The notes under the pieces were generated by a model. The model ran no database searches and was not told the DNA's origin. It saw only the letters and a program-made list of their open reading frames with translations. From Acidobacteriota bacterium (GTDB lineage: Bacteria > Acidobacteriota > Blastocatellia > Chloracidobacteriales > Chloracidobacteriaceae), in assembly GCA_016208495.1 (NCBI GenBank), contig JACQXX010000093.1, positions 1 through 52,826 of the forward strand: DNA of 52,826 nt, written 5' to 3'. The translations under genes and the position numbers were made by a program. This document shows, one piece after another, positions 19,828 through 49,565 of the stretch; within the stretch, counting starts at the first letter, position 1, and the number at the start of each line of letters is the position of its first letter.

Positions 19828-19830
19828 GGG

Positions 19831-19925
19831 ATGAGGGATGAGGGATGAGGGATGAGGGATGAGGGATGAAAGAAATCACCTTTTCACCTTGTCAGTTGGT
19901 CACCTTGTCACCTTGTCACCTTGTC
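19831..19925. repeat. Inverted copy of the composite heptamer/octamer repeat
   Basis: Tandem GGGATGA heptamers run into AAGAAATCACCTTTTCACC and CACCTTGT octamers. This is the reverse complement of the second half of the duplicated unit at 14811-14945. It supplies a spurious in-frame ATG (19866) ahead of receptor kinase 2. Confidence 0.8.
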
Positions 19926-20084
19926 ACTCTGTCACCCTGGTTATTGAAGGCTGGGGCACATCCTGCTACCCTCACCAGTGATTTCACTCAACCTTCCATC
20001 CATTTTCGAAACCATCGGCGTGCAACTCACGGGAACACTGTCAATCAGGCATTACCTTGGGGACTGGAGGTGAATCCGCATCGT

Positions 20085-23000
20085 ATGGATTGCTTTAACC
20101 ACTCCGCCAGAAAAAGAATTTCCGTCTGGGGATGGTTTCTCCTGGGGTTTTTGCTCTTTCCCCCATCGGTTCTGGGGATCAATCCCGACAAAGCCATCAC
20201 TCAGTATGTGATCAAAACATGGCAGGACGAATTGCCCCAAAACTCGGTCAATGCCATTGCCCAAACCGCTGACGGATATCTCTGGTTTGGGACCTATGAA
20301 GGTCTGGTCCGGTTTGATGGCGTTCGGTTTACCGTTTTTGATCGGAGCAATACCCCTGAATTTCAATCCAATCACGTCTGGCGATTATTTGTTGACAGCC
20401 AAAACCGACTCTGGATTGGGACCCTTGGAAGCGGCCTGTATTGCTACGAAAACGGGCGATTTACCCACATCGGCAGTGCTGATGGGTTGCTGAATAATTT
20501 TATCCGAACGCTTGCCGAAGGCCCAGACCACAGTCTCTGGATTGGCACTGATGGCGGTTTACACCGCTATCGGAATGGCCAGGTCACCGGGTTCACTGAA
20601 GCTCAAGGCTTGAAAAGCAATCTGGTAACGTCGTTTTGGACTGATCATTCAGGCGCCTTTTGGGTTGGCACCGACAAAGGGTTGAATCGGTTAAGCTCAG
20701 ATGGTCTTCGACTGATTCCGTTTGCGGATGAGCTTCTGTCCAAACGAATTTTTTATCTTTCGGAAGACCCTTCGGGCACGCTCTGGGCCGGGACAACCGA
20801 TGGTGTCATCCTCATTGATGCCAATCGAACCCAGGGTACCCGGCACCCGAAGCTGTCTGGGCTGCGGGCCAATGCCATCTGCCGGGACCGTGACGGCTGC
20901 GTGTGGTTTGGGGTATCGGGAGAGGGCGTTTTTCGGTTTACTGAGAAAGGGCTCAGTTCATTGTCAACCAAAAATGGGTTGGTCAACGACCGAATCCGAA
21001 ATATTTTCGAAGACCGTGAAGGAAATATCTGGATTGGTACTGGCGGTGGCGGTGTTACCTGTTTGTCTGATGGAAAGTTTGTCAATTATACGGTCAAGGA
21101 AGGGCTAAGTACTGACAGCATTCGGGCTGTGTATGAAGGTCTGGACGGTGCCATCTGGATCGGAACCGACAGCGGCGGGGTATGTCGGTATCAAAACGGG
21201 GAATTTCAAACTTTTTCCACTCAGGATGGCTTGCCTGGTGATATTGGTCGGGCCATCGTCCAATGTCGGGATGGGACGCTGTGGGTGGGGACTTCGCAAG
21301 GGTGTGCCTGGCGTAAGGATGGCAAATTTACCCCGTTGATTCTTCCTGGCGGGTTTGAATGTAATATTATTTCGGCACTGTGTGAAGATCGAAACGGCGG
21401 CCTGTGGATTGCTTCGTTTGAAGGATTATTTTTCCTGAAAGATGGAAAATTGAGTGTTTTCACCACCGCCAATGGATTGCAGGACAATGAAATCCGGTCA
21501 CTGTATCAAGACCGCCAGGGCACGTTGTGGGTCGGAATGTACGGCGGAGGGATTGATTGCATTCGAGATGGAAAAATAACCAAATATCCGCTTCCAAATA
21601 CCTCAGGCCAGGCCAGTTCAGTCTGGGCCTTTCATGAAGATCAGGCTGGAAATCTCTGGATTGGGACCGATGCCGGATTGCTCAGACTGCGGCCAGGAAT
21701 ATTGAACCGCCTGACCACCAGCCAGGGACTCTTTAGCGATACCATTTTCCAAATTCTGGAAGATGGCCGGCACAATCTCTGGATGACGTGCAACCGGGGG
21801 ATTTTTTCGGTTCCCAAGGCGGAGATTGAAGCGGTTTTCACCGGTGAGGCCGCCTCAGTTGGCTGTACTGTGTATGACAAACTCGACGGGTTAAATTCCA
21901 ATCAATGTAACGGCGGTACTCAACCTGCTGGTTGGAAAACCAGGGATGGAAAATTGTGGTTCCCGACATTGCGCGGTGTGTCAGTGATTGACCCGGAGCG
22001 GATTTCCAAAAACCTGAAGCCTCCGCCAGTGGTGATTGAACAGGTCCTGGTTGATGGCCGACCGGTCCCAGTCGCCGAAACATTGACCATCCCTCACACC
22101 ATGGAGCAGGTTGAATTTACCTACACCGGGTTAAGCCTGATTGTCCCCGAGCGAATCAAATTCAAATATATTCTGGAAGAGTATGACAAAAACTGGGTTG
22201 ATGCCGGCACCCGCCGGACGGCCTATTACACCAAAATCCCGCCCGGGAACTATCGGTTTCGACTCATTGCCTGCAACCAGGATGGGATCTGGAACGAGAC
22301 TGGGGCGGTGCTTTCGATTCGAGTGCCGACGCCACTGTGGCGGACGTGGTGGGCAATTTGTTTGTATGCTATTGGAAGCCTTGGACTTGGGTGGGGTGGG
22401 GTGCGTTTTCGGATTCGAACGCTCCAGCGGCAAAATGAAATCCTCGAATCCAAAATCGTCCAGCGAACGGCTTTGATCGAAGAGCAAAAAGCCAATCTGG
22501 CTCAGCAAAAAGCTCGACTTGAAAACCAGAATCAGCAACTGGAACAAAAGAATCAGGAGCTGGAGGCGTCACATCAGCAGGCCGACCGTATCTTCTCCGC
22601 CCTGGCCGAGGCATTGCCCGGAACGGTGCTTGATGGCAAATACCGCCTGGAAACCAAAATCGGCGCCGGTGGATTTGGCGTGGTGTTTCGCGCCACCCAT
22701 TTGACCTTAAACCTCCAGATTGCCGTCAAGGTTTTTAAACCACTTCACGGGAATGACAGCGCCAAAGCCGTCGAACGGTTTAAACGCGAAGGGATTTCGG
22801 CGTCGAGACTGAGCCATCCAAATGCAATTCGGGTGCTTGATTCAGGAATTTCAGATGAAGGCATTGCCTATCTGGTCATGGAATTTTTGCGTGGCTGCAC
22901 GCTGGCCCAGGCCATGCGTCGTCAGTCGCGGTTTTCGATCCAGCAGTGTATTGAAATTCTGGTTCCCATTTGCGAAGCCCTGGCCGAAGCCCACCAGTTG

Positions 23001-23663
23001 CAAATCATCCACCGGGATATCAAGCCGGATAATATTTTTCTCAATCAGACGATTGAAGGTGAAGTGGTCAAAGTGGTGGACTTCGGGATCGCCAAAATGG
23101 TCGGCGATGAATCCGGCGGGGAAATGGAAAAACTAACCCAAACCGGAGGCTTTCTGGGGACGCCGCTCTATATGGCACCTGAGCGGTTTTTGGGCCAGGG
23201 CTACGATGGGCGGTCCGATGTGTACAGCGTCGGTGTGATGTTTTATGAAATGCTCAATGGGAAAGTGCCGTTTCCCGTCGGACCGTCGGGGATAGTTGGG
23301 GTGATGATGGCACACTTTAATCAACCGCCTCCGTCATTGCGGTTGACGGATCCTGAAATTCCAGAGGTCGTTGAAGCCTTGATTGAGCAAACGCTGGCCA
23401 AAGATTCCACGAACCGGATGGATGCCAGAGAGCTGGCTCACCGCCTGCGCCAACTGGCTGAAATGCTTCCCGCCAATGTACTGAATCGAGTCCCCGGCAG
23501 GACAACTCAAGGCATTGCCGATACTGCGATTGAAGAAGCCGAAACGCTGGGGAATTCACTGATTCATCTGGCCGAGACTGTGACGATTGGTACGGCGGAT
23601 AAATCTGACAAAACCACCGTCGTTGGGAAACAAGCGGATCTGGAAACCGATCCAGACGGATAA
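20085..23663 (+). CDS. Reg_prop / Y_Y_Y receptor with cytoplasmic Ser/Thr kinase (receptor kinase 2)
   Basis: 1192 residues from the ATG at 20085, chosen because a signal peptide follows (ISVWGWFLLGFLLFPPSVLG) and GGAGG lies 14 bp upstream. The in-frame ATG at 19866 lies in a repeat. Parts: Reg_prop propeller (about 35-640; LWIGT..GL repeats with DGLP/NGL turns), Y_Y_Y domain (about 655-748), membrane helix (about 750-772), Gln/Glu-rich coiled coil (about 780-838), kinase (about 845-1100) with GAGGFGVVF, AVKVF, HRDIKPDN, DFGIAKM and APERF. The start of the protein after the signal (ITQYVIKTWQDELPQNSVNAI) is typical of Reg_prop receptors. It is a paralog of the gene at 15840, tandem in the same direction. 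The C-terminal tail contains scattered Thr and Asp. Confidence 0.91.
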   Translation: MDCFNHSARKRISVWGWFLLGFLLFPPSVLGINPDKAITQYVIKTWQDELPQNSVNAIAQTADGYLWFGTYEGLVRFDGVRFTVFDRSNTPEFQSNHVWRLFVDSQNRLWIGTLGSGLYCYENGRFTHIGSADGLLNNFIRTLAEGPDHSLWIGTDGGLHRYRNGQVTGFTEAQGLKSNLVTSFWTDHSGAFWVGTDKGLNRLSSDGLRLIPFADELLSKRIFYLSEDPSGTLWAGTTDGVILIDANRTQGTRHPKLSGLRANAICRDRDGCVWFGVSGEGVFRFTEKGLSSLSTKNGLVNDRIRNIFEDREGNIWIGTGGGGVTCLSDGKFVNYTVKEGLSTDSIRAVYEGLDGAIWIGTDSGGVCRYQNGEFQTFSTQDGLPGDIGRAIVQCRDGTLWVGTSQGCAWRKDGKFTPLILPGGFECNIISALCEDRNGGLWIASFEGLFFLKDGKLSVFTTANGLQDNEIRSLYQDRQGTLWVGMYGGGIDCIRDGKITKYPLPNTSGQASSVWAFHEDQAGNLWIGTDAGLLRLRPGILNRLTTSQGLFSDTIFQILEDGRHNLWMTCNRGIFSVPKAEIEAVFTGEAASVGCTVYDKLDGLNSNQCNGGTQPAGWKTRDGKLWFPTLRGVSVIDPERISKNLKPPPVVIEQVLVDGRPVPVAETLTIPHTMEQVEFTYTGLSLIVPERIKFKYILEEYDKNWVDAGTRRTAYYTKIPPGNYRFRLIACNQDGIWNETGAVLSIRVPTPLWRTWWAICLYAIGSLGLGWGGVRFRIRTLQRQNEILESKIVQRTALIEEQKANLAQQKARLENQNQQLEQKNQELEASHQQADRIFSALAEALPGTVLDGKYRLETKIGAGGFGVVFRATHLTLNLQIAVKVFKPLHGNDSAKAVERFKREGISASRLSHPNAIRVLDSGISDEGIAYLVMEFLRGCTLAQAMRRQSRFSIQQCIEILVPICEALAEAHQLQIIHRDIKPDNIFLNQTIEGEVVKVVDFGIAKMVGDESGGEMEKLTQTGGFLGTPLYMAPERFLGQGYDGRSDVYSVGVMFYEMLNGKVPFPVGPSGIVGVMMAHFNQPPPSLRLTDPEIPEVVEALIEQTLAKDSTNRMDARELAHRLRQLAEMLPANVLNRVPGRTTQGIADTAIEEAETLGNSLIHLAETVTIGTADKSDKTTVVGKQADLETDPDG

Positions 23664-34680: not shown

Positions 34681-35095
34681 TCTGGGAATCTCCTTTTCGG
34701 GGCGACTCTATCATCATTTGAACCAGCAGGTTCGTCTTTCGGCGCAGGTTAGAGCTTTTCAGAAAAAGATTCCTTCTGTAAATTTTTCCGTGATGAGTTC
34801 CTGCAAAACAGGTTGGAAATTCAGGGGGTTCGGTTTGAATTTCCAAACCGTCTCTACAGAATCCAGTACAAAAGAATTTATAGAAAGCATTTTTGCAGTG
34901 AATGCCTCGGATGAGAAGACTGTCAAATGATTCAATCAAATGAGCTTAGCGAACCATTGACCACTGACGACTGACGACTGACTACCTTTAACAATTGTTT
35001 GACAAATGGCTCATTCGAAAGGATTATTCCACATCGCACTGCCGTACACTGTTGCTGTGAATCACTCCCAACCTACTCCACAGAGGAAACAGTTT
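34681..35095. other. Divergent intergenic region before the WD40 protein
   Basis: The 415 bp separate two divergently transcribed genes. A good promoter for the WD40 gene lies at 34999-35027. Tandem ACGACTG heptamers are at about 34960-34984. The block near 34755-34790 shares words (TTTTCAGAAAAAGA) with 39914-39930. No gene seen. Confidence 0.55.
34999..35027 (+). promoter_or_regulatory. Promoter of the WD40-ROC-phosphoesterase gene
   Basis: A perfect TTGACA (34999-35004), a 17-bp spacer and GATTAT (35022-35027, 4 of 6). Transcription would start near 35034. That is downstream of the in-frame ATG at 35006 and so supports the start at 35096. Confidence 0.5.
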
Positions 35096-38000: not shown

Positions 38001-39502
38001 GGGCTGAATTTGAAAAGCCTGGCTCTGGTGTGTGTGGGGTGCAAAAAGTGGTTCACAAGAGCGGGCGTGCCTGCCTGGATTTATTTTTCAGCGAGCAAAC
38101 ACCAACGGAAATTCGTGATTTGTTTACTGTTTTTGTAGAAGATCATATCCGGCGTGAAGGGGTGGAAATCACTGAGGTTCAAGAGATTATCTGTTCGTGT
38201 GGTTATCGCTTTGACCAGGATACAGTTCAGGAATATGTTGACGCCGACGAAATTGAGATCGTTTGTTTGCGTCCAAAATGCCGAAAACCAAACCGAATTG
38301 GCCAGCGAGCGTCCAAAATTCGCGATACTTCGCCAGGGATTGAAAAAGAACTCAGTGCGATCAAAACCACCATTGAAAAAAGGAGCAAAGCCGAAGTGGC
38401 AACCTATATGCAAACTTCAAACCGGGCCCAAATTGAAAAAGAAAAACAATCATCAGAAAACCCTATCCGGATTTTGCATTTGAGCGACATCCACGTAAAT
38501 CCCGACACCGATCCACTTTCCAGATTGCAGCCGTTGATGAGTGATTTGCGGGATAAAGACGAAGGCTTGGGCACTGAGCAGCTTGATTATCTGGTGATTT
38601 CAGGTGATTTAACCGACAAAGCGCAGCCCGAAGAGTTTGAAAAAGTGCATGAGTTCCTTTCACGCCTGATCGAACAATTTCAACTTTCAGCCGAACGGTG
38701 CATCATTGTGCCCGGCAATCACGATTTGAGCTGGTTTTCTGGATGCTATGAATGGAAAGACAGGCGTGTGGTAAATGTAAAAGCCTTAAAACCTGGAAGT
38801 TACAAAGAACAAAGCGACGGGTATCTGGTTCGCGTCAATGATAAATACCCACACCGGTTTGAAAACTTCGGCAAGTTTTACCATCAACTGGTGCAAAAGC
38901 CATATCCAACCGACGCCACCAAACAAGGTCTGTCATTCCTTTTCGAAGAACACGGCCTTCAATTCCTGGCGCTCAATTCAGCTTCTGAAATAGACGAGTA
39001 TTTCCCAGAGCGGTCAAGCATCAACGAAGGCGCACTTTCCAAAGGATTAGCTGACGCTGACAATCAGATCAAACAGGCCAAAAAAGAAAACCGGCTTGCG
39101 CACGATGCTGAAATTTTACGGATTGCGGTCTGGCATCACCCGGTGACGACCGACAAGGAACCGACCATGGACGCCGCTTTTCTGGAGCGACTTCAGAAGG
39201 AAAAATTCAAACTGTGCCTGCACGGGCACGTTCACGAAGACTGTGCTGACCTAGTTAGGTATTTGCATCCTACGCGACAGCTTCACATTGCCGGGGCTGG
39301 TTCATTTGGAGCGGCCAAAGACCAGCGACCTGAATCAATGCCCCGGTTGTACAATCTGATTGAAATAGAACGTGACCATAGTTTGATTCGCATCCACACG
39401 CGCTGTATGAAAAAGAACCTGAGTGCGTGGGAAGGCTGGGCCGTCTGGCCAAGCGACAAACCGCATGAAAAGCGGTCGTATTACGAGATTCGTTTAAAGT
39501 AA
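35096..39502 (+). CDS. WD40 - ROC GTPase - COR-like - metallophosphoesterase protein
   Basis: 1468 residues from the ATG at 35096 (AGAGGAAAC upstream; the 35006 ATG lies ahead of the predicted transcript start). Residues about 25-520 hold 12 WD40 repeats, eleven of them (R2-R12) starting exactly 42 residues apart (VSWSPDGKWLASGG...VRVWEVATGK), plus a degenerate blade to about 570. A ROC-type GTPase follows: P-loop GESRVGKS (592-599), DLGGQDEYR (near 647), GTKLD in place of NKxD, and ETSAK. A COR-like winged-helix region runs about 770-960. A zinc ribbon (CSCGYRF...CLRPKC, about 1032-1063) leads to a calcineurin-like phosphoesterase (about 1125-1440) with LHLSDIHV, ISGDLTD, PGNHDLS, WHHP and HGHVHED, all metal ligands present. 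No signal peptide, so cytoplasmic. The layout (sensor repeats, NTPase switch, enzymatic effector) resembles bacterial conflict/NLR-like proteins. Substrate unknown. Confidence 0.92.
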   Translation: MSDEMMPNDDAQTLHVVQVLGRKSHTINSLAWSPDGKTIATAGNDCTIWLWDVMTGNMKQILEGHMDWVMSVSWSPDGKWLASGGNDGKVKVWEVENGQVRHELEGHSGSVWSVSWSSEGKWLASGGSDGKVRVWEVETGKERQALEGHTASVWSVGWSPDGKWLASGGDDGKVKVWEVMTGKIRQDLEEYTRSVLTVSWSLDGQMVASGTVDGKLKVSEVMTGKMKQNLGGHLGSVWSVSWSPDGKCLASSGDDQKVRVWEVATGKMRQELGEHTSWVRSVSWSPDGKRLASGEFDQKVKVWEVATWKVKQEMKGHTDWMENVSWSPDGEWLASSGGDQKVRVWEVATGKVKKELDGHKDWMRSVSWSPDGEWLVTGGFDQKLRIWEAATGQIKQELEGHRDWARSVNWSPNGKWLVSGAGNGEVRVWEVATGKVKQELDRYPGSVLSLSWSPDGEWLAGGGAGGKVWVWEVATGKVRWTLEGFTDNVWNVNWSPDGTILIFAPFRGDVIIWNLGSEKLSSSIIARYPLDKPKYHSAGVFFFQGPDRQVSPVFDSEAGIIRHWKFDPKSLPLQAQATKTVVSTTAKVVLVGESRVGKSCLALQMAEKRYEEQDTTHGMKIWSLKPEDLCSEQVTPVDENREIVLWDLGGQDEYRLVHQLFLHDTSLALVLLDPIRGRDAFEEVEAWNVRLKKQLKGRSATKFLVGTKLDEPGTAIDRPGLNQLMHNGGFVEFYETSAKNGRGVPELCKALSEIIDWKAFTRVSRTVLFQTIRDEIQNHQQQGEVVLLYSDLEKRIQAKNLETFTPAAVNAVVEQMAAQGLIVDTRMVGGARVLVLQIDVVERYAGSLIFAARNNPRGLPALEIQQVALGKMNFPRLKESERLNPVQELTIVNCVVELLIEHGICLQHEGLLIFPALFPSVKAGDGEESPHSPSLKYGFTGAIGNIYSALIARLEYSDRFGRIRLWEDRAEFEKPGSGVCGVQKVVHKSGRACLDLFFSEQTPTEIRDLFTVFVEDHIRREGVEITEVQEIICSCGYRFDQDTVQEYVDADEIEIVCLRPKCRKPNRIGQRASKIRDTSPGIEKELSAIKTTIEKRSKAEVATYMQTSNRAQIEKEKQSSENPIRILHLSDIHVNPDTDPLSRLQPLMSDLRDKDEGLGTEQLDYLVISGDLTDKAQPEEFEKVHEFLSRLIEQFQLSAERCIIVPGNHDLSWFSGCYEWKDRRVVNVKALKPGSYKEQSDGYLVRVNDKYPHRFENFGKFYHQLVQKPYPTDATKQGLSFLFEEHGLQFLALNSASEIDEYFPERSSINEGALSKGLADADNQIKQAKKENRLAHDAEILRIAVWHHPVTTDKEPTMDAAFLERLQKEKFKLCLHGHVHEDCADLVRYLHPTRQLHIAGAGSFGAAKDQRPESMPRLYNLIEIERDHSLIRIHTRCMKKNLSAWEGWAVWPSDKPHEKRSYYEIRLK
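35288..36660 (+). repeat. Eleven in-frame 126-bp WD40-coding repeats
   Basis: Repeats begin at 35288 and every 126 bp after it (35414, 35540, 35666, and so on to 36548), without a single indel between starts. The DNA is very purine-rich on the coding strand, with long AG-only stretches such as GTGGGAAGTG contexts, unlike the GTPase and phosphoesterase parts of the same gene. This points to recent duplication and homogenisation. The region also leaves long but meaningless open frames on the minus strand. Confidence 0.9.
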
Positions 39503-40148: not shown

Positions 40149-43100
40149 ATGTCAGAGAAAAAAAACCGAATCCAAATCACCCGAACCGGGTTAACCCTGG
40201 GAATTACCCTGCTGCTTGGCTGGCTGGCCTGGATCAGTTCACCAGTTTCCCGATTAGAAACCAGGCCGACGCCTGCCAGACGTGGAATCCAAACAGGAAC
40301 GTCGGTGAAATCCAGGCCAGGTCAGGCCCAGACTACTCAGGGATTGACTTCTGAGACCCGAGGGAAATTTACCCCCAATGCCACGGTATCGGTTGAAGCC
40401 GTATCACTGGCCGTGCCGCCATTCCTTGATACCGTCAGTGGAAGGCATCTTCTACAGAAGAACGCGATGAGTTTTGATGGGCGATTTATCGTTTATAAGA
40501 GCGATTCTCCCAATCTGGTGGTGGGCCAGATTGATTCCAATTCTACCACTGATATCTTCGTTTTTGATCGGCAGACTGGAATTGCCGAACTTGTCAGTCG
40601 GGTTGCCGGGACGACCGCAACCGCAGGGAGTAGCATTTCAGATACTCCGGTCATCAGTGCCAACGGGCGATACGTTGCCTATCAGAGCTTTGCCACCAAT
40701 TTGGTGACGGGTCAGACTGATACAAATTCTCAGGTCGATATCTTTGTATTTGATCGGCAAACGGGCATCACCGAACTGGTCAGCCGGGCTGCCGGGACGA
40801 CCACGACGACTGGAAACAGTGATTCCCAGTCCCCAGTGATCAGCGATGATGGGCGCTACATTCTCTTTGTGAGCCGTGCCACGAACCTGGTACCGGGTCA
40901 AGCCGATACCAATGGGGTTACCGATGTTTTTATCTTTGATCGGCAGACGGGCACCACGGAACTGGTGAGTCGAGTTGCTGGAACAAACACAACCGCTGCA
41001 AATAATGAATCAGTTTTCCCGGTCATGAGTGTTGATGGAAGGTACATTGCATTTCAAAGCCGTGCAACGAACGTGGTTCCAGGTCAAACTGATACAAATA
41101 ATAACAGTGATATCTTTGTAATTGATCGCCAGACGGGAATCACTCAGATTGTGAGCCACGCCGACGGGGCGGGAACTACGACCGGCAATGGTGTGTCAAA
41201 TTTTCCGGTGATAAATGCCAATGGCAGATACATTGTGTTTGGAAGTACGGCGACCAACCTGGTGACAGGCCAAAGTGATGTTAATGCCGCGACCGATATC
41301 TTTGTTTTTGATCAGCTCTCGGGGACGATCACACTGGTGAGTCGAGCTGCCGGGACGACGGCCACGACGGCCAATAATCAGTCAGGCTCAGCCATTGATA
41401 TCAATGCGGACGGGAGGATCATTGTCTTTCAAAGTGTTGCAACCAATCTGGTAACTGGCCAAACGGATAGCGCCAATATCGTTGATGTTTTTGTTTTTGA
41501 TCGGCAGGCAGGAACGACCGAACTGGTGAGCCGGGCGGCTGGGACAACCACCACTGCCGGGGATGGTCATTCGTTAAGGCCGCTTGTAGATTCCAGCGGG
41601 AGATACATTGTGTTTGAAAGCCTTGCGACCAACCTCATTACAGGTCAAACAGAGGCAAACAATGGAGAGGATGTCTTTGTTTTTGATCGGCTGATGGGAA
41701 TCACCCGGTTGGTGAGTCGGGCTGCGGGAACAAGTGCCACAACGGGAAACCAGATTTCATTCTTACCCGTGATCAGCCGGGATGCAAACTCGATTGTCTT
41801 TGTGAGCGAAGCCAACGATCTGGTTTCTGGAATTGTTGATGTGCCAAGGCAGGATATCTTTATTTATGACCAAATTGGGGAAACAAATAGTGTGGTGACA
41901 CAGCATGCGCCAGGTTCCCCCAGTTTGACTGGATCTGATAGTAGTGCCTTAACAACTTTGAACTCAATCAGTCCCGATGGTCGGTACCTGGTGTTTGTCA
42001 GTACTGCCGTCAATTTGGTGTCAGGGCAGATTGATACGCTCAATACTTTTGATATTTTTGTGTTTGACCGTCAGACAGGAGCTACTGAACTGGTCAGTCG
42101 GGTGGCTGGAACCAGCACCATGGCGGGGAACGGAAATTCAAATTTGCCAGTGATCAGTGCCGATGGGAGATATATTACATTTAACAGTGACGCCTCCAAT
42201 CTGGTGTCAGGGCAGCTTGATACCAATAACGGTGCAGATGTTTTTGTCTTTGATCGTCAGACGGGAACCACTGAGCTGGTTAGCCGAGCCGTTGGAACAA
42301 ACTTCACGACTGGAAATTCACCTTCAGTTACCCCAACTATGAGTGCCGATGGCCGATATATTGCGTTCCAAAGTGATGCTACCAACTTAGTATCGGGTCA
42401 GCTTGATACCAATAACGGCGCAGATGTTTTTGTCTTTGATCGCCAGACAGGAACCAGCGAGATTGTCAGCCGGGCTGCCGGGACGAGCACTACAACTGGG
42501 AATAGAGCGTCTATTTTCCCAGTGATGAGTGCCGATGGAGGGTATATTGCGCTTACCAGTTTTGCAACCAATCTGGTCCCCGGGCAGAGTGATACCAACA
42601 ATGATACGGATGTTTTTGTCTTTGATCGCCAGACGGGAACCACTGACCTGGTTAGTCATGCTGCCGGGCAGAGCGTGGCAACTGGGAATATGGTGTCAGC
42701 CTCCCCGGTGATCAATGCTGATGGGCGATATGTTGTGTTTACCAGCAATGCCACCAATCTGGTCCCTGGCCAGAGTGATGCCAACAACGCCATCGATGTT
42801 TTTGTCTTTGATCGTCAAGGGGGAACTACGGAACTGGTCAGCCGGGCGGCTGGGTTAACCGCGACAACTGGAAATGCCAGTTCGTCAAGTGCTGTGATCA
42901 GTTCCGATGGGGGATCCATTGCCTTTCAAAGCGTTGCCACCAATCTGGTCCCCGGCCAGAATGATACCAATTCCACCTTTGATATCTTTGTCTTGAATCG
43001 CCAAACAGGAATCACTGAACTGATCAGTCGGACTCCTGGAATGAGCACCCAGGTTGGAAACGGATCGTCTATGTCGCCAACCCTGAATGCCAATGGGACT

Positions 43101-44801
43101 TTTGTGGCGTTTGTAAGCTTTGCGACTAATCTGGTACCAGGGCAAACCGATGCTCCCTCCACCTCTGATATCTTTGTGTTTGATCGAACAAACCAGGAGA
43201 TGGTGCTGCTCAGTGGGGCGGGAGGATCACCAACAATAGCTGGAAATTCAAGTTCTCAGTCTGCCGTGATCAATGCCAGTGGACAATATATTGGGTTTAG
43301 CAGCTCATCGAGTAATCTGATTGCGGGAGATTACAATCTGAGTTTAGATGTATTTCTAGCCGAATTTTGCCCAACCGTTACCGCAACTGTAGGCGGTAGT
43401 GGGCCGATCTGTACGGGAAGCTCAACCACTGTGACCGCCACGATTCTGGGTGGCACCCCACCCTATACGGTGACTTTGACCAGTGGTGGCGGCACTCAAA
43501 CCGGAAACAGCCCATTGATTTTTCCGGTGGCACCTGACGCCACCACCACCTATGCCATCCAGTCAGGAACCGATGCCAGCGGATGTCCGATCACGGGCAA
43601 TGGAAGTGTTCAGGTGATGGTTGTGCTGCCTCCGACCGTCACTGCCGGATCCGATCAAACCGTCTGTACCAGCAGTTTGCCCGCGACCCTGGCTGGATCA
43701 ATCGGCGGAAGCGCGACGATGGGAACCTGGAGCGGTGGCGGTGGAACATTTAATCCTGGGCCGACCGCACTCAATGCCCGTTACATGCCATCCGCCAGTG
43801 AAATCGCCGCTGGAATAGTGACCTTGACCTTGACCACGAATGACCCAGGCGGGGTTTGTTCGCCAGTTTCAGATACCGTGACCATCTTCATTTTGAATTG
43901 TGCGGAAACCGGCCAGTTACTGGTGGCCGATACCGCAAATAACCGGATTCAACGTTTTGATGGAACCACCTGGAGTCTGATTGGTTCAGGGGTTGTTGGT
44001 TCTGGAGCCGGCCAATTCCGCTTGCCAGAAGCGGTTACGTTTAATGGTGCCGGTCGAATCTATGTTGCAGACACCGGCAACAACCGCATTCAGTGGTCAA
44101 CCGATGATGGAGCGACCTGGGCAAATTTTGCTACCGTTGGTTCTGCCTCAAATCAAGTTCGGTCGCCACAGGGAGTATGTCTGGATTCGGCTGGGAATCT
44201 TTATGTGTCGGATACCGGAAATGGGCGGGTCGTACGCTTTAACAGTGGAACTCCTGGAGCTGGCGTGGTGATTGCAAGTAATGGCGCCGCCAGCGGGCAG
44301 GTTGGAAGTCCGCACGGGCTGGTGATTAACAGCACGTTTCGGTTGTTTGTGACGGATGAAAGTAATAGTCGAATTCTGAGTATTGCCAGTGCCAACACCG
44401 TGACGACTTCGACCAGTGGCACCATCCTTGCCTCTCAGGGAACGGGTCTAAACAAAGTCAAAAATCCGCAAGGCATTACGATTGATGAGGCAGGAACCCT
44501 GTACATTGCCGACACGGGGAATTCGCGAATTTTGCGCTGGGTGAATGCCAATCCAAACAACAGTTCAGCGCTGGCGACGATTGGATCACTTCTCGGACAG
44601 GTCAATCGGGCCGAAGGCATTACGACCAAATTCTTTACTTCCGGACCGTTTGCCGGAAGCTGGATGCTCGTGGTCGGAGATAGCGCAAATAACCGGATCC
44701 AGGGGAAATTTATCCAGGCGGGAGGCTGGTCGCTGGTGGGTGCTCCAAATAATGTCGGCTCTGGCACCGGACAATTCCGAACACCATCAAAGATTCAGTA
44801 A
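40149..44801 (+). CDS. Secreted multi-repeat propeller / adhesin / NHL protein
   Basis: 1550 residues; GAGAGGA precedes the ATG at 40149. An N-terminal hydrophobic segment (about 13-31) is a signal peptide or anchor. Residues about 100-1075 contain about 16 repeats of roughly 62 residues with the pattern GRYIAFQSDATNLV.GQ.DTNN..DVFVFDRQTG.TELVSRAAGT, a TolB/WD40-like propeller type. About 1078-1165 and 1170-1255 are Ig/PKD-like adhesin domains (VTAGSDQTVC...LTLTTNDPGGVC...VSDTVTI). From about 1258 on come NHL-type repeats (LLVADTANNRIQRFDG, IYVADTGNNRIQWS, LYVSDTGNGRVVRF, LYIADTGNSRILRW). It probably works outside the cell as a binding or surface protein. Its C-terminal modules are closely related to those of the gene at 50097. 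It ends at a strong terminator. Confidence 0.9.
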   Translation: MSEKKNRIQITRTGLTLGITLLLGWLAWISSPVSRLETRPTPARRGIQTGTSVKSRPGQAQTTQGLTSETRGKFTPNATVSVEAVSLAVPPFLDTVSGRHLLQKNAMSFDGRFIVYKSDSPNLVVGQIDSNSTTDIFVFDRQTGIAELVSRVAGTTATAGSSISDTPVISANGRYVAYQSFATNLVTGQTDTNSQVDIFVFDRQTGITELVSRAAGTTTTTGNSDSQSPVISDDGRYILFVSRATNLVPGQADTNGVTDVFIFDRQTGTTELVSRVAGTNTTAANNESVFPVMSVDGRYIAFQSRATNVVPGQTDTNNNSDIFVIDRQTGITQIVSHADGAGTTTGNGVSNFPVINANGRYIVFGSTATNLVTGQSDVNAATDIFVFDQLSGTITLVSRAAGTTATTANNQSGSAIDINADGRIIVFQSVATNLVTGQTDSANIVDVFVFDRQAGTTELVSRAAGTTTTAGDGHSLRPLVDSSGRYIVFESLATNLITGQTEANNGEDVFVFDRLMGITRLVSRAAGTSATTGNQISFLPVISRDANSIVFVSEANDLVSGIVDVPRQDIFIYDQIGETNSVVTQHAPGSPSLTGSDSSALTTLNSISPDGRYLVFVSTAVNLVSGQIDTLNTFDIFVFDRQTGATELVSRVAGTSTMAGNGNSNLPVISADGRYITFNSDASNLVSGQLDTNNGADVFVFDRQTGTTELVSRAVGTNFTTGNSPSVTPTMSADGRYIAFQSDATNLVSGQLDTNNGADVFVFDRQTGTSEIVSRAAGTSTTTGNRASIFPVMSADGGYIALTSFATNLVPGQSDTNNDTDVFVFDRQTGTTDLVSHAAGQSVATGNMVSASPVINADGRYVVFTSNATNLVPGQSDANNAIDVFVFDRQGGTTELVSRAAGLTATTGNASSSSAVISSDGGSIAFQSVATNLVPGQNDTNSTFDIFVLNRQTGITELISRTPGMSTQVGNGSSMSPTLNANGTFVAFVSFATNLVPGQTDAPSTSDIFVFDRTNQEMVLLSGAGGSPTIAGNSSSQSAVINASGQYIGFSSSSSNLIAGDYNLSLDVFLAEFCPTVTATVGGSGPICTGSSTTVTATILGGTPPYTVTLTSGGGTQTGNSPLIFPVAPDATTTYAIQSGTDASGCPITGNGSVQVMVVLPPTVTAGSDQTVCTSSLPATLAGSIGGSATMGTWSGGGGTFNPGPTALNARYMPSASEIAAGIVTLTLTTNDPGGVCSPVSDTVTIFILNCAETGQLLVADTANNRIQRFDGTTWSLIGSGVVGSGAGQFRLPEAVTFNGAGRIYVADTGNNRIQWSTDDGATWANFATVGSASNQVRSPQGVCLDSAGNLYVSDTGNGRVVRFNSGTPGAGVVIASNGAASGQVGSPHGLVINSTFRLFVTDESNSRILSIASANTVTTSTSGTILASQGTGLNKVKNPQGITIDEAGTLYIADTGNSRILRWVNANPNNSSALATIGSLLGQVNRAEGITTKFFTSGPFAGSWMLVVGDSANNRIQGKFIQAGGWSLVGAPNNVGSGTGQFRTPSKIQ

Positions 44802-44831
44802 TCGTTCCCAGACCATTCTTTGTCTTTTTTG

Positions 44832-44897
44832 TCACCACAGCGGAACACCGAGGGGCGTCAACCAGCCTCTCTGGGTTCTTCTGTGGTGAGTTTTTTT
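44832..44897 (+). terminator. Intrinsic terminator after the 40149 gene
   Basis: TCACCACAG (44832-44840) pairs with CTGTGGTGA (44881-44889), with further pairing inside (GGAAC/GTTC and GAGG/CCTC). Seven T follow (44891-44897). It starts 31 bp after the stop codon and separates the gene from the convergent sigma factor gene. Confidence 0.8.
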
Positions 44898-44922
44898 CCG
44901 AGGGCTCAACAGACTCAGAACA

Positions 44923-45489
44923 CTACCCAACCCCCTTGATTTCGCTGACCAGCCAGGCTCTGGTCAGTCGCCATTCGCGGTTCATTGTGGCCAGTGAAAT
45001 CCCAAGCACGGCGGCGACTTCTTCGTTGCTCAATCCCGCAAAGAACTTGAGTTCGACAACTTTACTTTTTCGTTGGTCGATTGCTTCGAGCTTGGTGAGC
45101 GTCTGGTTCAAGGCCAGGATTTCCCAATTTTGACGATCATCAGGCAAGCCAATGACTTCATTGAGGGTGACTTTATGCCCTCCGCCTCGCTTTTCAGTTT
45201 TGAGCGCCAGGGCGTGGTTGACCAGAATATGACGCATCATTCGTGCTGCAACCCCAAAAAAATGAGCCCGGTTTTGCCATTGTAAATCCTGTTCACCCAA
45301 TAGCTTGAGATAGGCTTCGTGGACGAGGGCCGTGGTTTGCAAGGTATGGTCAGGGCGTTCCCGGCGCAGGTAGCGGCTGGCGATTCGATGCAATTCGTCA
45401 TAGACTAAGGGAAAGAGTTTATCGAGGGCGGATGAATCCCCTTGATTCCATTCCTGTAAGATCTGAGTCATATCTGGTGGCAAACTCAT
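44923..45489 (-). CDS. ECF-type sigma factor (TIGR02999-like)
   Basis: 188 residues from the ATG at 45489, with GGAGG upstream; an in-frame start at 45567 would overlap the divergent gene. Region 2 is clear (LVYDELHRIASRYLRRE, TLQTTALVHEAYLKL, HFFGVAARMMRHILVNHA) and so is region 4 (RKSKVVELKFFAGLSNEEVA, VLGISLATMNREWRLTRAWL). The pattern matches the ECF group annotated as TIGR02999, which in Acidobacteria and Planctomycetes is often encoded beside Ser/Thr kinases. No anti-sigma gene is next to it. The divergent neighbour, 53 bp away start to start, is receptor kinase 3, so control by phosphorylation is a reasonable inference. Confidence 0.9.
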   Translation of the reverse strand: MSLPPDMTQILQEWNQGDSSALDKLFPLVYDELHRIASRYLRRERPDHTLQTTALVHEAYLKLLGEQDLQWQNRAHFFGVAARMMRHILVNHALALKTEKRGGGHKVTLNEVIGLPDDRQNWEILALNQTLTKLEAIDQRKSKVVELKFFAGLSNEEVAAVLGISLATMNREWRLTRAWLVSEIKGVG

Positions 45490-45542
45490 ACCCTTTTTTT
45501 CCTCCACATCACACCATATCGCAATCTTCTCTGGCGGAAAAG
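45490..45542. promoter_or_regulatory. 53-bp divergent control region, sigma factor / receptor kinase 3
   Basis: The starts of the two genes are only 53 bp apart, too short for two separate full promoters plus leaders. At least one promoter must lie inside the opposite coding region. No clear -35/-10 pair can be assigned by eye. Confidence 0.4.
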
Positions 45543-48500
45543 ATGCAGTGGGCTCTTTTGATTTCACTATTCCTCTTATGCTTCCACGGGTTAGCCTCTG
45601 ATGTATGTTTGGCTATCCATGGACCTGCTCTCAGCCGAGAAACTGATCTGGCGGAGCTGGCTCGACCAACCTTCCGCTTTTTCACCGACCAGGCCGGTTT
45701 GCCGCAAAACACAATCAACTGCATCACGGTTGACCGAAAAGGGTATCTCTGGGTTGGGACACAGGATGGCGCCGCTTACTACAATGGCCGCCAGTGGACT
45801 GTGGTCAATATGCCGAATCGAACGGCGTCAAACGATGTCACCAATATCCTGGCGGCTTCAGATGGAAGCCTGTGGTTTACGACCAATGGTGGTGGACTGG
45901 CCAATCTCAAAGATGGGAACTGGATCCGCTTTGACACGACCAACTCAGGTTTGCCAGATGACTCTCTGGAAGGACTGGTAGAAATTATTGAACCAGATGG
46001 ACATTCCACGCTCTGGATTGGTACGTCACAGGGATTGGTGCGATATGAACAGAACCATTGGACGGTGTTTTCGACTCAAAATTCAGGGCTTTCAGATAAC
46101 CTCATCAGTTCAATCCTCGCGGTTACCGATTCGTCGGGGAAACAATCATTGTGGATTGGGTCAAGTACCGGGTTTACCTGCTATGAATCCGGGCAGTGGA
46201 AACATTTTGAGAACCACCAGGAAGGAAGAGGCCCGGCACAGGTTTTGCAAATGTGTACTACCCGGTCCTTCACTGGAAACACTGTGCTGTGGGTCGGAAC
46301 CAATGGAAATGGATTGATCCGACACGAAGCCGGCCAGTCGGTGTTTTTGACTCCAGATAATTCAGAATTACCAGACGGTGTGATCCAGGCGCTGTGTCCG
46401 ACAATTTCACCTTCTGGAAAAGAGGCCCTCTGGGTTGGGACCGCCGGAGGTCTGGTCTGGTTGGAGGAAACTTCACAACTACAGGGGACAGGGGACAGGG
46501 TTCAGGGGTTAGAGAGTCAGGCTCTTCCGAAGTATCGCTGGAAAATCACAACCACTGAAAATTCAAATCTTTCGAGCAATTTGATTTCCAGTTTGTTTGA
46601 ACTGACAAATTCATCCGGCTGGCGGACCTTGTGGGTTGGAACATACAGCAATGGCCTAGGTCGGTTTGAAGAACAAGGGTGGGTTAGTCTCTCGGCGAGA
46701 AACTTTCCCTCCATCGGAAGCCGTGCCTATAGTTTGCTTGAAACTATTTCCCCAGCCGGGCAGTTCACGTTCTGGATTGGCACCAACAGCAATGGCCTGT
46801 TTCGCTATGAGGCCGGCCAATGGACAACCATCAATACCCAAACTTCGAATCTTCCTTCCAACCAAATTCTGAGTTTATTGGAAACCAGGTCACCTTCTCA
46901 CCCGTCCACTCTGTGGGTAGGAACTGACGGCTCTGGTCTGGCATGCCTTGAAACCAGCCGCTGGACGACGTTAACGGCTGAAAACTCAGGCTTGCCCGGC
47001 AACATTGTAAATTGCCTGTGCCGGGCGGCATCAGCTTCTGATCCGTCGGCACTCTGGATTGGAACGTTAAATGGTCTGGCACGTTTTGAGGCCGGGCAAT
47101 GGACCACATTGACCGAAGAAAATTCTGACCTTCCCAGTAACCGGGTTTTTTGTCTCCACGAAAGCCTTTCCTCGGATGGACAGCCTTGTTTATGGGTTGG
47201 GACGTTGGGTGGTGGGCTGGCAAGTCTGAAAAATGGGAAATGGACCATCTGGAACAGTGCTAGTTCGCAACTACCGAACAATTCAGTACTCAGTCTGCTT
47301 GAAACCACTGCGCCATCCGGGAAACGGGTGCTCTGGGTTGGGACATATGGTGGTGGCGTTGCCTGTTTCGAAATTGATTCTCCCGCCGCCCCCTGGCTCG
47401 TGTTGACTGACACCACCACACCTGAACTCCCAAACAACACGATTTATCAGATTTGCGAAGATGCCCAAAAACGAATTTATCTTTTGACCAACAAAGGCGT
47501 GGTTCGTCTTACGCCACGACTCCCAACTCCAGACAACCCGGCATCCTATGCGGTGTACACCTTTTCAATTGAAAACGGCTTGCCAGGCAGCGAAGGGAAT
47601 CAAGGAGCGTCGCTGGTGGATCATCAGGGGCGTATCTGGGTGGGAACAACTGGCGGAGTGGCAATGCTTGATCCGGCCAGAGCCGTTGATGACCGGTCAC
47701 CGAAGCCGCTCTATATTGAGCGATTGATCATCAACAGAACGGAACGGCGCGGGAGTGACCAGCCTTTTTCCTTGCCCTACACTGAAAACAGCCTGGCCTT
47801 CGATTTTGCGCTGTTGAGCTATTTCCGTGAAACAGACACGATGTATCAGGTTCAACTGGCTGGCTATGATTCCCAACCCACACCCTGGACTTCAGCTTCG
47901 ACCAAGGAATACACCAATCTAAAAGCTGGCGACTATATCTTCAACGTGTGGGGACGCGACTCGTTTGGGACTATCGCCGGTCCAGTGTCGGTCAGGTTTA
48001 CCATCCGACCGGCACCCTGGAATACATGGTGGGCCTATCTTGTGTATTTGCTTGGTTTAGCCGGTGCCGGCTATGGCGGAGTCCAGTGGCAACTTCGGAC
48101 GCTCCGGCGACGCAACGAGCTTTTGGAGCATAACGTCAAACTTCGTACCGAAGAACTTTCTCAACAGAAGGCTGAACTTGGTCAAAAGGTACAGGAACTC
48201 TATCAGAAAAATCAGGAACTGGTTGAATCACACCAGCGAGCTGACCGCATCTTTTCAGCTCTGGCCGAAGCCCTGCCTGGAACAGTCCTTGACGGAAAAT
48301 ATCGGCTGGATGAGAAAATCGGCGCCGGTGGGTTCGGTGTTGTTTTTCGCGGTACACATCTGACCCTTCATCATCCAATTGCCATCAAAGTATTTAAACC
48401 CTCATCGGGCAACGATTCACCAAAAGCTGTGGAACGCTTTAAACTGGAAGGCGTTACCGCCGCCAGGCTCAATCACCCAAATATTGTGAGGGTGCTCGAT

Positions 48501-49565
48501 TCGGGCATTTCAACCGACGGCATTGCCTATCTGGTCCTGGAGTTGCTCCATGGGCATTCTCTGGCTCGGGAACTTCGTGAGGTGAAAATCCTTTCACTTG
48601 AGCGAAGCGCCATGATTCTGATTTCAGTTTGCGATGCCCTGGCCGAAGCTCACCGCCAGGGGCTGGTTCATCGCGATATTAAGCCCGACAATATTTTTCT
48701 CCATCAAACACCTGACGGCGAAGTGGTTAAGGTCGTGGATTTTGGCATCGCGAAAATGTTGGAAGCCAGTAGTGACGTGAATCTCCAAAACTTGACTGTT
48801 ACTGATGGGCTGATTGGGACACCCAAATATATGTCTCCAGAGCGTTTGGAGGGAGAGTCATACGATGGTCGGTCTGATGTCTATAGTTTGGGGCTGGTGC
48901 TCTACGAAATGTTATGTGGTGAAGTGCCGTTTTATTCTCCAACCAACGGATTATTGGGAATGATCAAGCGACGCATCACCGAATTGCCGAAACCGCCAGG
49001 AGCAATCAATCCAGCACTTTCTGAAGCTGTTGAAACTGTAATGTTACAGGCGCTGGCCAGAATTCCCGATCAACGACCAACAGCCGAAGAACTGAAACAA
49101 CAATTTCTCAGTGCTTCGGGTTTGGACCTGACAACACTCAAGGCGTCATCTGTCTACTCACTGCCAGTACAAACTCTCACTGAGAATGAGCTATCACGCG
49201 ACAGCCTCAGTTCACTCATCCATTCCAGGGCCCTGGCTCATCGGATGACACACGTTGGGAATATTCTGGCTGATTTACTTGAGCGCTCACCTGGAAACCG
49301 GGAAACCGTGGTACAAGAGATTTCGACAGATGATCCTCAGTTGAAGGCCACCATCACCGCACTGGTAGCGCCCGGCGATCAAGAACTCCAGGGGGAATTT
49401 TTGACGAAGGAGCTCTGGATCAAAATTGAGAAAGTTTTTTTCTCAGTACTGAACTATCCTCCTCACCAGTGGGCGGAGGTTCTGGATGAAGAGTGTGCTG
49501 GAAATGCATTTCTCCGCCAGAAAGTTGAGCTTCTGATTGCCGCTGATTTGGAAGCCAGGGAGTAA
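45543..49565 (+). CDS. Reg_prop / Y_Y_Y receptor with cytoplasmic Ser/Thr kinase (receptor kinase 3)
   Basis: 1340 residues from the ATG at 45543, chosen because a signal peptide follows directly (MQWALLISLFLLCFHGLA). The open frame extends 37 codons further up into the sigma factor gene, without signal-like sequence. Parts: Reg_prop propeller (about 33-712, LWVGTNGNGLIR...LPDN type), Y_Y_Y domain (about 742-824), membrane helix (826-849), coiled coil (about 853-910), kinase (about 914-1186) with GAGGFGVVF, AIKVF, HRDIKPDN, DFGIAKM and SPERLE. Unlike its paralogs it has a 150-residue tail ending in WAEVLDEECAGNAFLRQKVE, a motif common in acidobacterial and planctomycete kinases. Residues about 315-330 (QLQGTGDRVQGLESQ) are an insertion encoded by repeat-like DNA. 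Confidence 0.91.
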   Translation: MQWALLISLFLLCFHGLASDVCLAIHGPALSRETDLAELARPTFRFFTDQAGLPQNTINCITVDRKGYLWVGTQDGAAYYNGRQWTVVNMPNRTASNDVTNILAASDGSLWFTTNGGGLANLKDGNWIRFDTTNSGLPDDSLEGLVEIIEPDGHSTLWIGTSQGLVRYEQNHWTVFSTQNSGLSDNLISSILAVTDSSGKQSLWIGSSTGFTCYESGQWKHFENHQEGRGPAQVLQMCTTRSFTGNTVLWVGTNGNGLIRHEAGQSVFLTPDNSELPDGVIQALCPTISPSGKEALWVGTAGGLVWLEETSQLQGTGDRVQGLESQALPKYRWKITTTENSNLSSNLISSLFELTNSSGWRTLWVGTYSNGLGRFEEQGWVSLSARNFPSIGSRAYSLLETISPAGQFTFWIGTNSNGLFRYEAGQWTTINTQTSNLPSNQILSLLETRSPSHPSTLWVGTDGSGLACLETSRWTTLTAENSGLPGNIVNCLCRAASASDPSALWIGTLNGLARFEAGQWTTLTEENSDLPSNRVFCLHESLSSDGQPCLWVGTLGGGLASLKNGKWTIWNSASSQLPNNSVLSLLETTAPSGKRVLWVGTYGGGVACFEIDSPAAPWLVLTDTTTPELPNNTIYQICEDAQKRIYLLTNKGVVRLTPRLPTPDNPASYAVYTFSIENGLPGSEGNQGASLVDHQGRIWVGTTGGVAMLDPARAVDDRSPKPLYIERLIINRTERRGSDQPFSLPYTENSLAFDFALLSYFRETDTMYQVQLAGYDSQPTPWTSASTKEYTNLKAGDYIFNVWGRDSFGTIAGPVSVRFTIRPAPWNTWWAYLVYLLGLAGAGYGGVQWQLRTLRRRNELLEHNVKLRTEELSQQKAELGQKVQELYQKNQELVESHQRADRIFSALAEALPGTVLDGKYRLDEKIGAGGFGVVFRGTHLTLHHPIAIKVFKPSSGNDSPKAVERFKLEGVTAARLNHPNIVRVLDSGISTDGIAYLVLELLHGHSLARELREVKILSLERSAMILISVCDALAEAHRQGLVHRDIKPDNIFLHQTPDGEVVKVVDFGIAKMLEASSDVNLQNLTVTDGLIGTPKYMSPERLEGESYDGRSDVYSLGLVLYEMLCGEVPFYSPTNGLLGMIKRRITELPKPPGAINPALSEAVETVMLQALARIPDQRPTAEELKQQFLSASGLDLTTLKASSVYSLPVQTLTENELSRDSLSSLIHSRALAHRMTHVGNILADLLERSPGNRETVVQEISTDDPQLKATITALVAPGDQELQGEFLTKELWIKIEKVFFSVLNYPPHQWAEVLDEECAGNAFLRQKVELLIAADLEARE

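What the first reader, a model, noticed from the sequence alone, without database searches (positions are those of the whole stretch)
44923..49565. Receptor kinase 3 paired head-to-head with an ECF sigma factor
Only 53 bp separates the two starts, no anti-sigma gene is present, and the sigma factor belongs to a group often found with Ser/Thr kinases. The kinase also has the extra C-terminal tail seen in such kinases. A direct line is plausible: periplasmic signal, kinase, sigma phosphorylation, regulon.
Basis: partly seen in the sequence, partly recalled or inferred. Interest (0 to 1): 0.55.

Follow-up and report, generated by a model that had tools for sequence, protein, structure and literature searches.

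The report
Sigma-docking module on a receptor kinase
A bacterial membrane receptor kinase sits next to a transcription factor that it probably switches on by phosphorylation, and the kinase's odd tail turns out to be a small, widespread, unnamed module that seems to hold that factor.

Summary
In detail: an ECF sigma factor (44923-45489, -) and a propeller receptor Ser/Thr kinase, RK3 (45543-49565, +), start 53 bp apart. The sigma has the ECF43 signature (QTTA in region 2.2). Sigmas activated by such kinases are known (EcfP/PknT, EcfK/PknS), so the core idea is not new.

The new part is the kinase tail: two copies of a ~55-residue three-helix module without a Pfam or NCBIfam family. In this genome 13 of 13 full-length sigmas of the family sit beside a module-bearing kinase; RK3 alone has it C-terminally. 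No module was found in the ~104 other kinases. In 247 phylum genomes the two co-occur (104 both, 5 sigma only, 3 module only). Residues 8-56 of PknS, disordered in its crystal, match the module.

Module residues covary with sigma region 4 far more than the kinase domain does. Couplings found in 149 pairs, noted beforehand, replicated in 91 new pairs from nine MAGs labelled outside Acidobacteria (56 from one), rank true partners above chance within single genomes, and co-switch on a tree.

Best reading: RK3 docks its sigma through region 4 and phosphorylates Thr53. Neither step is shown. The RK3 architecture was found in one relative only.

The parts
44923..45489 (-). ECF sigma factor gene (188 aa), TIGR02999 / PF07638
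45328..45339 (-). QTTA motif of sigma region 2.2 (Q51-A54); predicted phospho-acceptor Thr53 is codon 45331-45333
   Evidence: codon positions; phospho-acceptor position by correspondence with the ECF43 motif in PMC13147305 and PMC8999054 (passages)
45067..45069 (-). Sigma Lys141, region 4, covaries with module position 10 (Glu in RK3)
44968..44970 (-). Sigma Arg174, region 4, covaries with module position 49 (Asp in RK3)
44944..44946 (-). Sigma Ser182, region 4, covaries with module positions 44 and 41; RK3's own pairs here (S-L, S-K) are not the common R-S, R-E
45490..45542 (.). 53-bp spacer between the two start codons
   Evidence: no sigma-70-type promoter or terminator-like site found in 44780-45700
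45543..49565 (+). Receptor kinase RK3 (1340 aa): leader, Reg_prop propeller, membrane-proximal region, coiled-coil-like stretch, Hanks kinase, module tail
48300..49103 (+). Hanks-type kinase domain of RK3 (aa 920-1187)
49239..49370 (+). Module copy 1, degenerate
   Evidence: E 0.034; the same weak first copy is in the relative L086
49401..49562 (+). Module copy 2 (aa 1287-1340), predicted three helices
15840..19586 (+). Receptor kinase 1: same architecture, no module and no sigma beside it (internal comparison)
19866..23663 (+). Receptor kinase 2: same architecture, no module and no sigma beside it (internal comparison)

Best explanation
RK3 and the sigma are a dedicated signalling pair of the ECF43 type. 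A periplasmic propeller senses something unknown and controls the cytoplasmic Hanks kinase. The small module at the end of the kinase (two copies, the second well kept) holds the sigma by region 4 through charge-matched contacts (sigma K141 with module E10; sigma R174 with module D49). Held there, the sigma offers Thr53 of its QTTA motif to the kinase; the phosphate supplies the negative charge that region 2.2 lacks, and the sigma can then bind RNA polymerase. Shown here: the genes, the motif, the module, its tight association with this sigma family, and repeated covariation of module and region 4. Inferred: physical docking, phosphorylation of Thr53, the order of events. Unknown: the signal and the regulon.
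For: Sigma: TIGR02999 with QTTA, the ECF43 consensus (PMC13147305). In 122 distinct sigma segments, the Thr53 position is Thr (101) or Ser (5) in all 106 readable ones with a module within 6 kb. Own genome: 13 of 13 full-length sigmas beside a kinase, all 13 of those kinases with the module, none of about 104 other kinase genes. Of 80 genome-contig loci fetched by sigma alone, 71 hold a module, 67 within 1.5 kb. Seven of seven named plasmid loci in Gemmatimonadota, Planctomycetota, Bacteroidota and Pseudomonadota have it, one only weakly. Copy numbers over 39 genomes: r = 0.984. 247 phylum genomes: 104 both, 5 sigma only, 3 module only, 135 neither. PknS, shown by others to phosphorylate EcfK directly, carries the module at residues 8-56. 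Covariation: 237 pairs, z > 6 in 10 of 10,740 sigma-module column pairs and 1 of 40,812 sigma-kinase column pairs; 30 row shuffles never exceeded 6.6 against a true maximum of 17.5. Three rules noted beforehand held in 91 new pairs: p 2e-5, 4e-7, 1e-8. Rules trained on the discovery set rank true partners above chance within genomes: n 56, p 5e-5; n 20, p 5e-5; own genome n 11, p 0.001. Co-switching on a tree: 23 of 40, 22 of 57 and 29 of 56 sigma changes fall on the branch of a matching module change, 4.3, 6.8 and 6.4 expected.
Against: No binding or phosphorylation was measured. The p values are not corrected for relatedness, and 56 of the 91 held-out pairs come from one MAG. In the held-out set the K141 rule is looser: 24 of 68 sigmas without K/R at 141 still face an acidic module residue. 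RK3's own pair at 182-44 (S-L) does not follow the common rule. The kinase alone has the same gene neighbour, so part of the covariation could be co-inheritance (the sigma-kinase comparison and the tree argue against this being all). Not every module kinase has a sigma nearby (L287, L288, L290: none within about 8 kb) nor every sigma a module (L097, L127, L165, L297-L303). In X. citri EcfK a T-to-A change at the equivalent Thr is still functional in the published work and linker sites also matter. RK3's second membrane span stayed below my hydropathy threshold.
Confidence: 0.72

Rival explanations
1. Half anti-sigma: the module is not only a handle but an inhibitor. By covering the DNA-binding part of region 4 it keeps the sigma idle at the membrane, as helices 1-3 of a class I anti-sigma domain do, and phosphorylation of region 2.2 replaces the job of the missing fourth helix, so the kinase is anti-sigma and activator in one.
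For: Passages of PMC7406223 describe helix 1 (and a specificity residue in helix 3) of class I anti-sigma domains contacting the last helix of region 4, often Arg in the sigma with Asp in the anti-sigma, and helix 4 covering region 2. The module couplings use helix 1 (10, 14) and helix 3 (41, 44, 48, 49, 52) with sigma 138, 141, 174, 175, 181, 182.
Against: No significant sequence relation to zf-HC2 anti-sigma domains: hhalign probability 1.2, P 0.046, although gapless and collinear. The published model says unphosphorylated EcfP is inactive by itself, so no inhibitor is needed. Structure comparison was uninformative.
Confidence: 0.35
2. The module is a regulatory part of the kinase (autoinhibition or dimerisation) that merely travels with this kinase subfamily; the sigma is recognised by the kinase domain itself.
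For: In PknS the segment is linked flexibly to the kinase and could act in cis (passage). Module and kinase are one protein, so co-inheritance could mimic covariation.
Against: Sigma-module column pairs exceed z 6 ten times in 10,740, sigma-kinase pairs once in 40,812. In RK3 the kinase domain belongs to a propeller-kinase family with no module elsewhere in the genome, so the module does not simply follow a kinase lineage. Its position varies: N-terminal, about 700 residues from the kinase (L015), or C-terminal.
Confidence: 0.12
3. The pair works, but the phosphosite that matters is in the linker between regions 2 and 4 (as T106 in EcfK), not Thr53.
For: Published EcfK data: phosphorylation at T51 or T106 suffices, and T51A is functional (passages).
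Against: The position of Thr53 is Thr or Ser in 106 of 106 readable module-associated sigmas. I did not test linker positions, because the EcfK sequence was not at hand.
Confidence: 0.15
4. Chance neighbours: RK3 acts on other targets and the sigma is controlled by its own expression.
For: This exact pair was found in one other genome only.
Against: 13 of 13 sigma-kinase adjacency in the genome; the same head-to-head pair with tandem C-terminal modules in G013; matched charges at 141/10 and 174/49 in both.
Confidence: 0.04

Closest known systems
EcfK/PknS of Xanthomonas citri (ECF43; PMC13147305, passages read; PDB 9EED)
   Same: Sigma with Q-x-T motif beside a Hanks receptor kinase; the kinase carries the module (residues 8-56, E 3.9e-9)
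   Different: Module N-terminal and single in the matched chain; periplasmic TPR sensor instead of a propeller; the paper says of the 83-residue segment only that it is conserved in Xanthomonadaceae and may be functional
EcfP/PknT of Vibrio parahaemolyticus (ECF43; described in passages of PMC8999054; primary paper not held)
   Same: STTA motif in place of DAED; activation by phosphorylation of the second Thr
   Different: Sequence not at hand, so the module was not tested in PknT
Class I anti-sigma domains, e.g. RseA (PMC7406223, passages)
   Same: Small helical domain coupling to region 4 by helix 1 and helix 3 positions, Arg-Asp type contacts
   Different: No conserved HxxxCxxC in the module alignment A4 (single near-invariant Cys); no significant profile match; fused to a kinase; no fourth helix seen in the 55-residue module of RK3
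Propeller receptors of the hybrid two-component kind (family features recalled from memory)
   Same: Reg_prop propeller; Y_Y_Y in RK1, RK2 and the RK3 relative L086
   Different: Output is a Hanks kinase; Y_Y_Y not detected in RK3 at 1e-3

Membership tests
ECF43 / kinase-activated ECF sigma | Sigma of the TIGR02999 / PF07638 type | tested here: met
   206.3 bits, cut-off 126.15; PF07638 1.4e-55. The formal ECF43 model was not available
ECF43 / kinase-activated ECF sigma | Region 2.2 DAED replaced by uncharged residues with a Thr (QTTA) | tested here: met
   Q51-T52-T53-A54
ECF43 / kinase-activated ECF sigma | Hanks kinase gene next to the sigma gene | tested here: met
   53 bp away; 13 of 13 paralogues too
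ECF43 / kinase-activated ECF sigma | No anti-sigma gene alongside | tested here: inconclusive
   None in the flanking gene scanned; not every neighbouring ORF was scanned
ECF43 / kinase-activated ECF sigma | Direct phosphorylation by the paired kinase activates the sigma | not testable with these tools
   Needs a bench assay
Hanks-type receptor kinase | Kinase domain with catalytic motifs | tested here: met
   Pkinase 172.5 bits; HRDIKPDN, DFG, SPE
Hanks-type receptor kinase | Membrane-spanning, sensor outside | tested here: inconclusive
   N-terminal hydrophobic leader found; the segment after the propeller stayed below KD 1.5
Class I anti-sigma domain | Contacts sigma region 4 by helix 1 | tested here: inconclusive
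   Covariation of module 10 and 14 (helix 1) with sigma 138, 141, 175; contact itself not shown
Class I anti-sigma domain | Fourth helix covering region 2 | tested here: inconclusive
   Three helices in the RK3 module; only 60 columns were analysed, so a further helix in other kinases is not excluded
Class I anti-sigma domain | Sequence family (zf-HC2 type) | tested here: inconclusive
   hhalign probability 1.2, P 0.046; no zf-HC2 hit among the 48 members of A4. Other anti-sigma families were not compared by profile
Hybrid propeller sensor family | Reg_prop plus Y_Y_Y | tested here: inconclusive
   Reg_prop 66.1 bits; Y_Y_Y not listed for RK3 but present in L086

The most novel reading that the evidence does not exclude
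The unnamed module is half an anti-sigma domain: it grips region 4 and keeps the sigma idle at the membrane, while control of region 2 has been handed from the anti-sigma's fourth helix to a phosphate. One membrane protein would then be sensor, anti-sigma and activating kinase, and hundreds of such pairs would be insulated from each other by a readable charge code. RK3 shows that the grip can be moved to the other end of an unrelated receptor kinase and still recruit a sigma.
Probability: 0.33. Interest if true: 0.82.

Novelty: new variant of a known kind. Interest (0 to 1): 0.62.

Why it matters
Kinase-activated sigma factors occur by the dozen in soil bacteria (13 here; 72 in one MAG), and how each kinase finds its own sigma is, as far as I saw, unexplained. 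The module gives a concrete answer with named residues that can be tested by charge swaps. It offers a role for the disordered N-terminal segment of PknS, gives a sequence mark for kinases that address a sigma, and suggests that receptor kinases could be rewired to new sigmas by moving about 55 residues. Searches that turned up no description of the module: in an open-licence library that lacks the primary EcfP paper and the 2021 ECF classification.

Tried and rejected
Rejected: that the tail is a plain variable extension (it is a family-wide module); that the pairing is chance; that the module is a known Pfam or NCBIfam domain (48 members scanned, only scattered weak hits of one to three members; PHROGs and PADLOC were not scanned).

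Led nowhere: structure comparison of the predicted tail (Foldseek best E 7.2; VIA-align best Z 2.4 over 9 chains); profile comparison with anti-sigma domains from 22 of 30 fetched loci, 8 dropped for lack of the motif in the frame read; promoter and terminator scan. The sigma 177 / module 54 coupling could not be tested on new pairs, because the window has a gap at that column and my script tested another column.

Against my reading: 13 of 47 module-found loci had no sigma within 1.5 kb. With wider stretches one (L284) has the sigma just beyond the kinase gene, L289, L293 and L285 have one 1.7-8 kb away, L287, L288 and L290 have none within about 8 kb, and six lie on short contigs or at contig ends. 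Four of 30 phylum sigma loci had no module within 1.5 kb; seven such sigma loci widened to about 8 kb (three of these four sites and others) still had none. Of the 80 genome-contig loci, 9 had no module, of which L131, L149 and L184 break off within 500 bp downstream, L163 within 150 bp upstream, and L110 and L158 within 1.9 kb downstream. Of 110 held-out sigmas 19 were dropped for no module within 1.5 kb; at least 6 of these have a kinase or module reaching the edge of the stretch fetched or lying further off. Three sigmas with Asn at the Thr53 position have no module in the stretch held, but they are one orthologous group, so one event. Tandem modules are not special to RK3: L444 has two at the N-terminus; the C-terminal place was seen only in RK3 and L086. 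The per-genome counts use different thresholds. The module models were built partly from the sets they were then run on; BLAST with the RK3 tail alone found 5 of the 12 other partner kinases and nothing else in those loci.
Full report
What is there. The two genes are as described: sigma 44923-45489 on the minus strand and receptor kinase RK3 45543-49565 on the plus strand, 53 bp apart between the chosen starts. The sigma belongs to TIGR02999 (206.3 bits, cut-off 126.15) and PF07638. RK3 has a hydrophobic leader, Reg_prop propeller repeats and a Hanks kinase domain at aa 920-1187 with HRDIKPDN, DFG and SPE. The window has two further receptor kinases of the same architecture, RK1 and RK2. They lack the tail module, and no sigma of this family lies beside them.

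The sigma is of the kinase-activated kind. Its region 2.2 reads QTTA where ordinary sigmas have an acidic DAED motif. In passages that I read of PMC13147305 and PMC8999054, QTTA is the ECF43 consensus, the second Thr is the phosphosite of EcfP (STTA), and PknS phosphorylates EcfK directly. In 122 distinct sigma segments of my sets, the matching position is Thr (101) or Ser (5) in all 106 readable ones with a module within 6 kb. Among 14 readable ones without a module it is Thr (10), Ser (1) or Asn (3, one orthologous group). The phosphorylation step for this pair is therefore an inference from a known mechanism.

The tail is a module. The genome has 14 matches to the sigma: 13 full-length and one fragment with a stop inside. 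All 13 full-length ones lie beside a kinase. The other 12 partner kinases begin with a segment of about 55 residues that matches the RK3 tail; in one (L015) it lies about 700 residues from the kinase domain. BLAST with the RK3 tail alone found 5 of these 12. A profile of the 13 found those 13, a weak first copy in RK3 (E 0.034) and one chance-level hit (E 0.73) in 8.4 Mb, against 122 Pkinase matches. Five genes appear to match in two pieces, so I count about 117 kinase genes, 13 with and about 104 without the module; with 105 in place of 104 Fisher's p is 1.4e-17. RK3 is one of 22 own-genome kinases with E at or below 1e-104 to its membrane-proximal and kinase region, and the only one of them with a module.

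The association is wide. Of 80 genome-contig loci fetched with the sigma alone, 71 hold a module, 67 within 1.5 kb and 63 within 500 bp. In seven named plasmid records (Gemmatirosa twice, Paludisphaera, Eleftheria, Persicobacter twice, Pseudoalteromonas) all seven have it, the last only weakly, and in Eleftheria only the second of two kinases has it. Across 39 relatives, copy numbers of sigma and module correlate at r = 0.984 (33 genomes with both, 5 with neither, 1 with module only). Across 247 genomes of the phylum 104 have both, 5 only the sigma, 3 only the module and 135 neither (p 4e-59). A profile search of PDB sequences gives 9EED at E 3.9e-9, residues 8-56. That entry is PknS(1-364), whose first 81 residues were invisible in the crystal and whose 83-residue N-terminal segment 'may play a functional role'. 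The module has no Pfam or NCBIfam family.

Exceptions. Some module kinases have no sigma close by, and some sigmas no module; numbers are under Tried and rejected. Where both kinds of orphan occur in one genome they may pair in trans; this is a guess.

The module covaries with sigma region 4. In 149 sigma-kinase pairs (dominated by Acidobacteriota; 15 pairs come from plasmids or from MAGs labelled as other phyla) the strongest couplings of all sigma columns with module or kinase-domain columns were sigma 141 with module 10 (z 13.1; K-E 37, K-D 14, Q-K 41 pairs) and sigma 182 with module 44 (z 11.8), followed by 174 with 49 (7.5) and 182 with 41 (6.9); the best sigma-kinase pair reached 6.1. 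I wrote three rules in the notebook and then fetched new loci from nine MAGs labelled Planctomycetes, Verrucomicrobia, Deltaproteobacteria, Rhodothermia, Ignavibacteriales, KSB1 and Gemmatimonadetes. In 91 new pairs (56 from one MAG, 20 from another, 15 from the rest) the rules held: K/R141 with D/E10, odds ratio 12, p 2e-5; R182 with S44, 15, p 4e-7; R/K174 with D/E49, 17, p 1e-8. These p values ignore relatedness. Eight further sigmas were left out as already in the discovery set and 19 for lack of a module within 1.5 kb.

Controls. With 237 pairs, z exceeds 6 for 10 of 10,740 sigma-module and 1 of 40,812 sigma-kinase column pairs. In the 89 held-out rows taken alone with kinase domains (88 pairs plus the window row for numbering) the top two of all column pairs are 174-49 and 141-10. 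Thirty shuffles of the pairing gave maxima up to 6.6 against 17.5. Rules trained on the discovery set rank the true partner at the 75th percentile among 56 paralogues in one MAG (p 5e-5, the floor of the test) and at the 70th among 20 in another (same p). In the own genome, trained without it, the rank is the 71st among 11 of 13 pairs (p 0.001); two pairs fell to filters. One pair of the first MAG was in the training set. On a tree made without region 4 and module, 23 of 40, 22 of 57 and 29 of 56 sigma changes share a branch and direction with the module change (4.3, 6.8 and 6.4 expected), while 21 random column pairs of similar variability gave 0-13 shared branches against 1.6-8.0 expected.

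Geometry. The prediction of the RK3 tail gives three helices for the second copy (module residues 3-16, 21-32 and 36-53) at pLDDT above 90 for nearly all blocks; the first copy is less sure. Coupled module positions 10 and 14 lie in helix 1, and 41, 44, 48, 49 and 52 in helix 3; coupled sigma positions are 138, 141, 174, 175, 181 and 182, which I place in region 4 from the Pfam match and from memory of the fold. The window pair has the matched charges K141-E10 and R174-D49, and so has its relative L086.

Conservation of the pair itself. L086 in G013 (same order; 87% complete, 5% contamination) has the sigma head-to-head with a propeller kinase that ends in the same weak-then-strong module tandem; the kinases are 37% identical. 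A search of 162 genomes of the class with the RK3 tail gave 23 genomes with a match, of which only G000 and G013 match over both copies at the C-terminus. One further long match proved to be a tandem at the N-terminus (L444).

Mechanism. Docking on region 4 explains why kinase and sigma paralogues stay matched, why the module can sit at either end of the kinase, and why a family of propeller kinases gained a sigma partner when it gained the module. Passages of PMC7406223 describe class I anti-sigma domains that touch region 4 with helix 1 and region 2 with helix 4. The module resembles the first part of that scheme, but profile comparison gives no significant kinship. Whether docking also inhibits is open.

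Verdict. A real pair of a known kind with a new part: an unnamed, widespread, probably sigma-docking kinase module, here at the C-terminus and doubled. I found no description of it in eight literature searches; the library lacks the primary EcfP paper and the 2021 ECF classification.

Noticed in passing
G384 (genome of L181), loci L309-L392: A MAG labelled Deltaproteobacteria of about 8 Mb has 72 TIGR02999 sigma matches.
   Followed up: partly
L089, L094, L110: Orthologous sigmas with Asn at the phospho-Thr position (QTNA) and no module in the stretch held; they may have escaped kinase control.
   Followed up: partly
L287, L288, L290 and L297-L303: Module kinases without a sigma and sigmas without a module within about 8 kb; possible partners in trans.
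   Followed up: partly
L444:1746-3818: A kinase with two modules in tandem at its N-terminus, sigma gene just upstream.
   Followed up: partly
window 15840-23663: Two propeller receptor kinases in tandem without module or sigma beside them.
   Followed up: partly
window 35006-39502 and 40149-44801: A large WD40-repeat protein and a PD40 plus NHL propeller protein precede the sigma gene.
   Followed up: no
L104 (Eleftheria terrae plasmid): Sigma followed by two kinases, of which only the second has the module.
   Followed up: no
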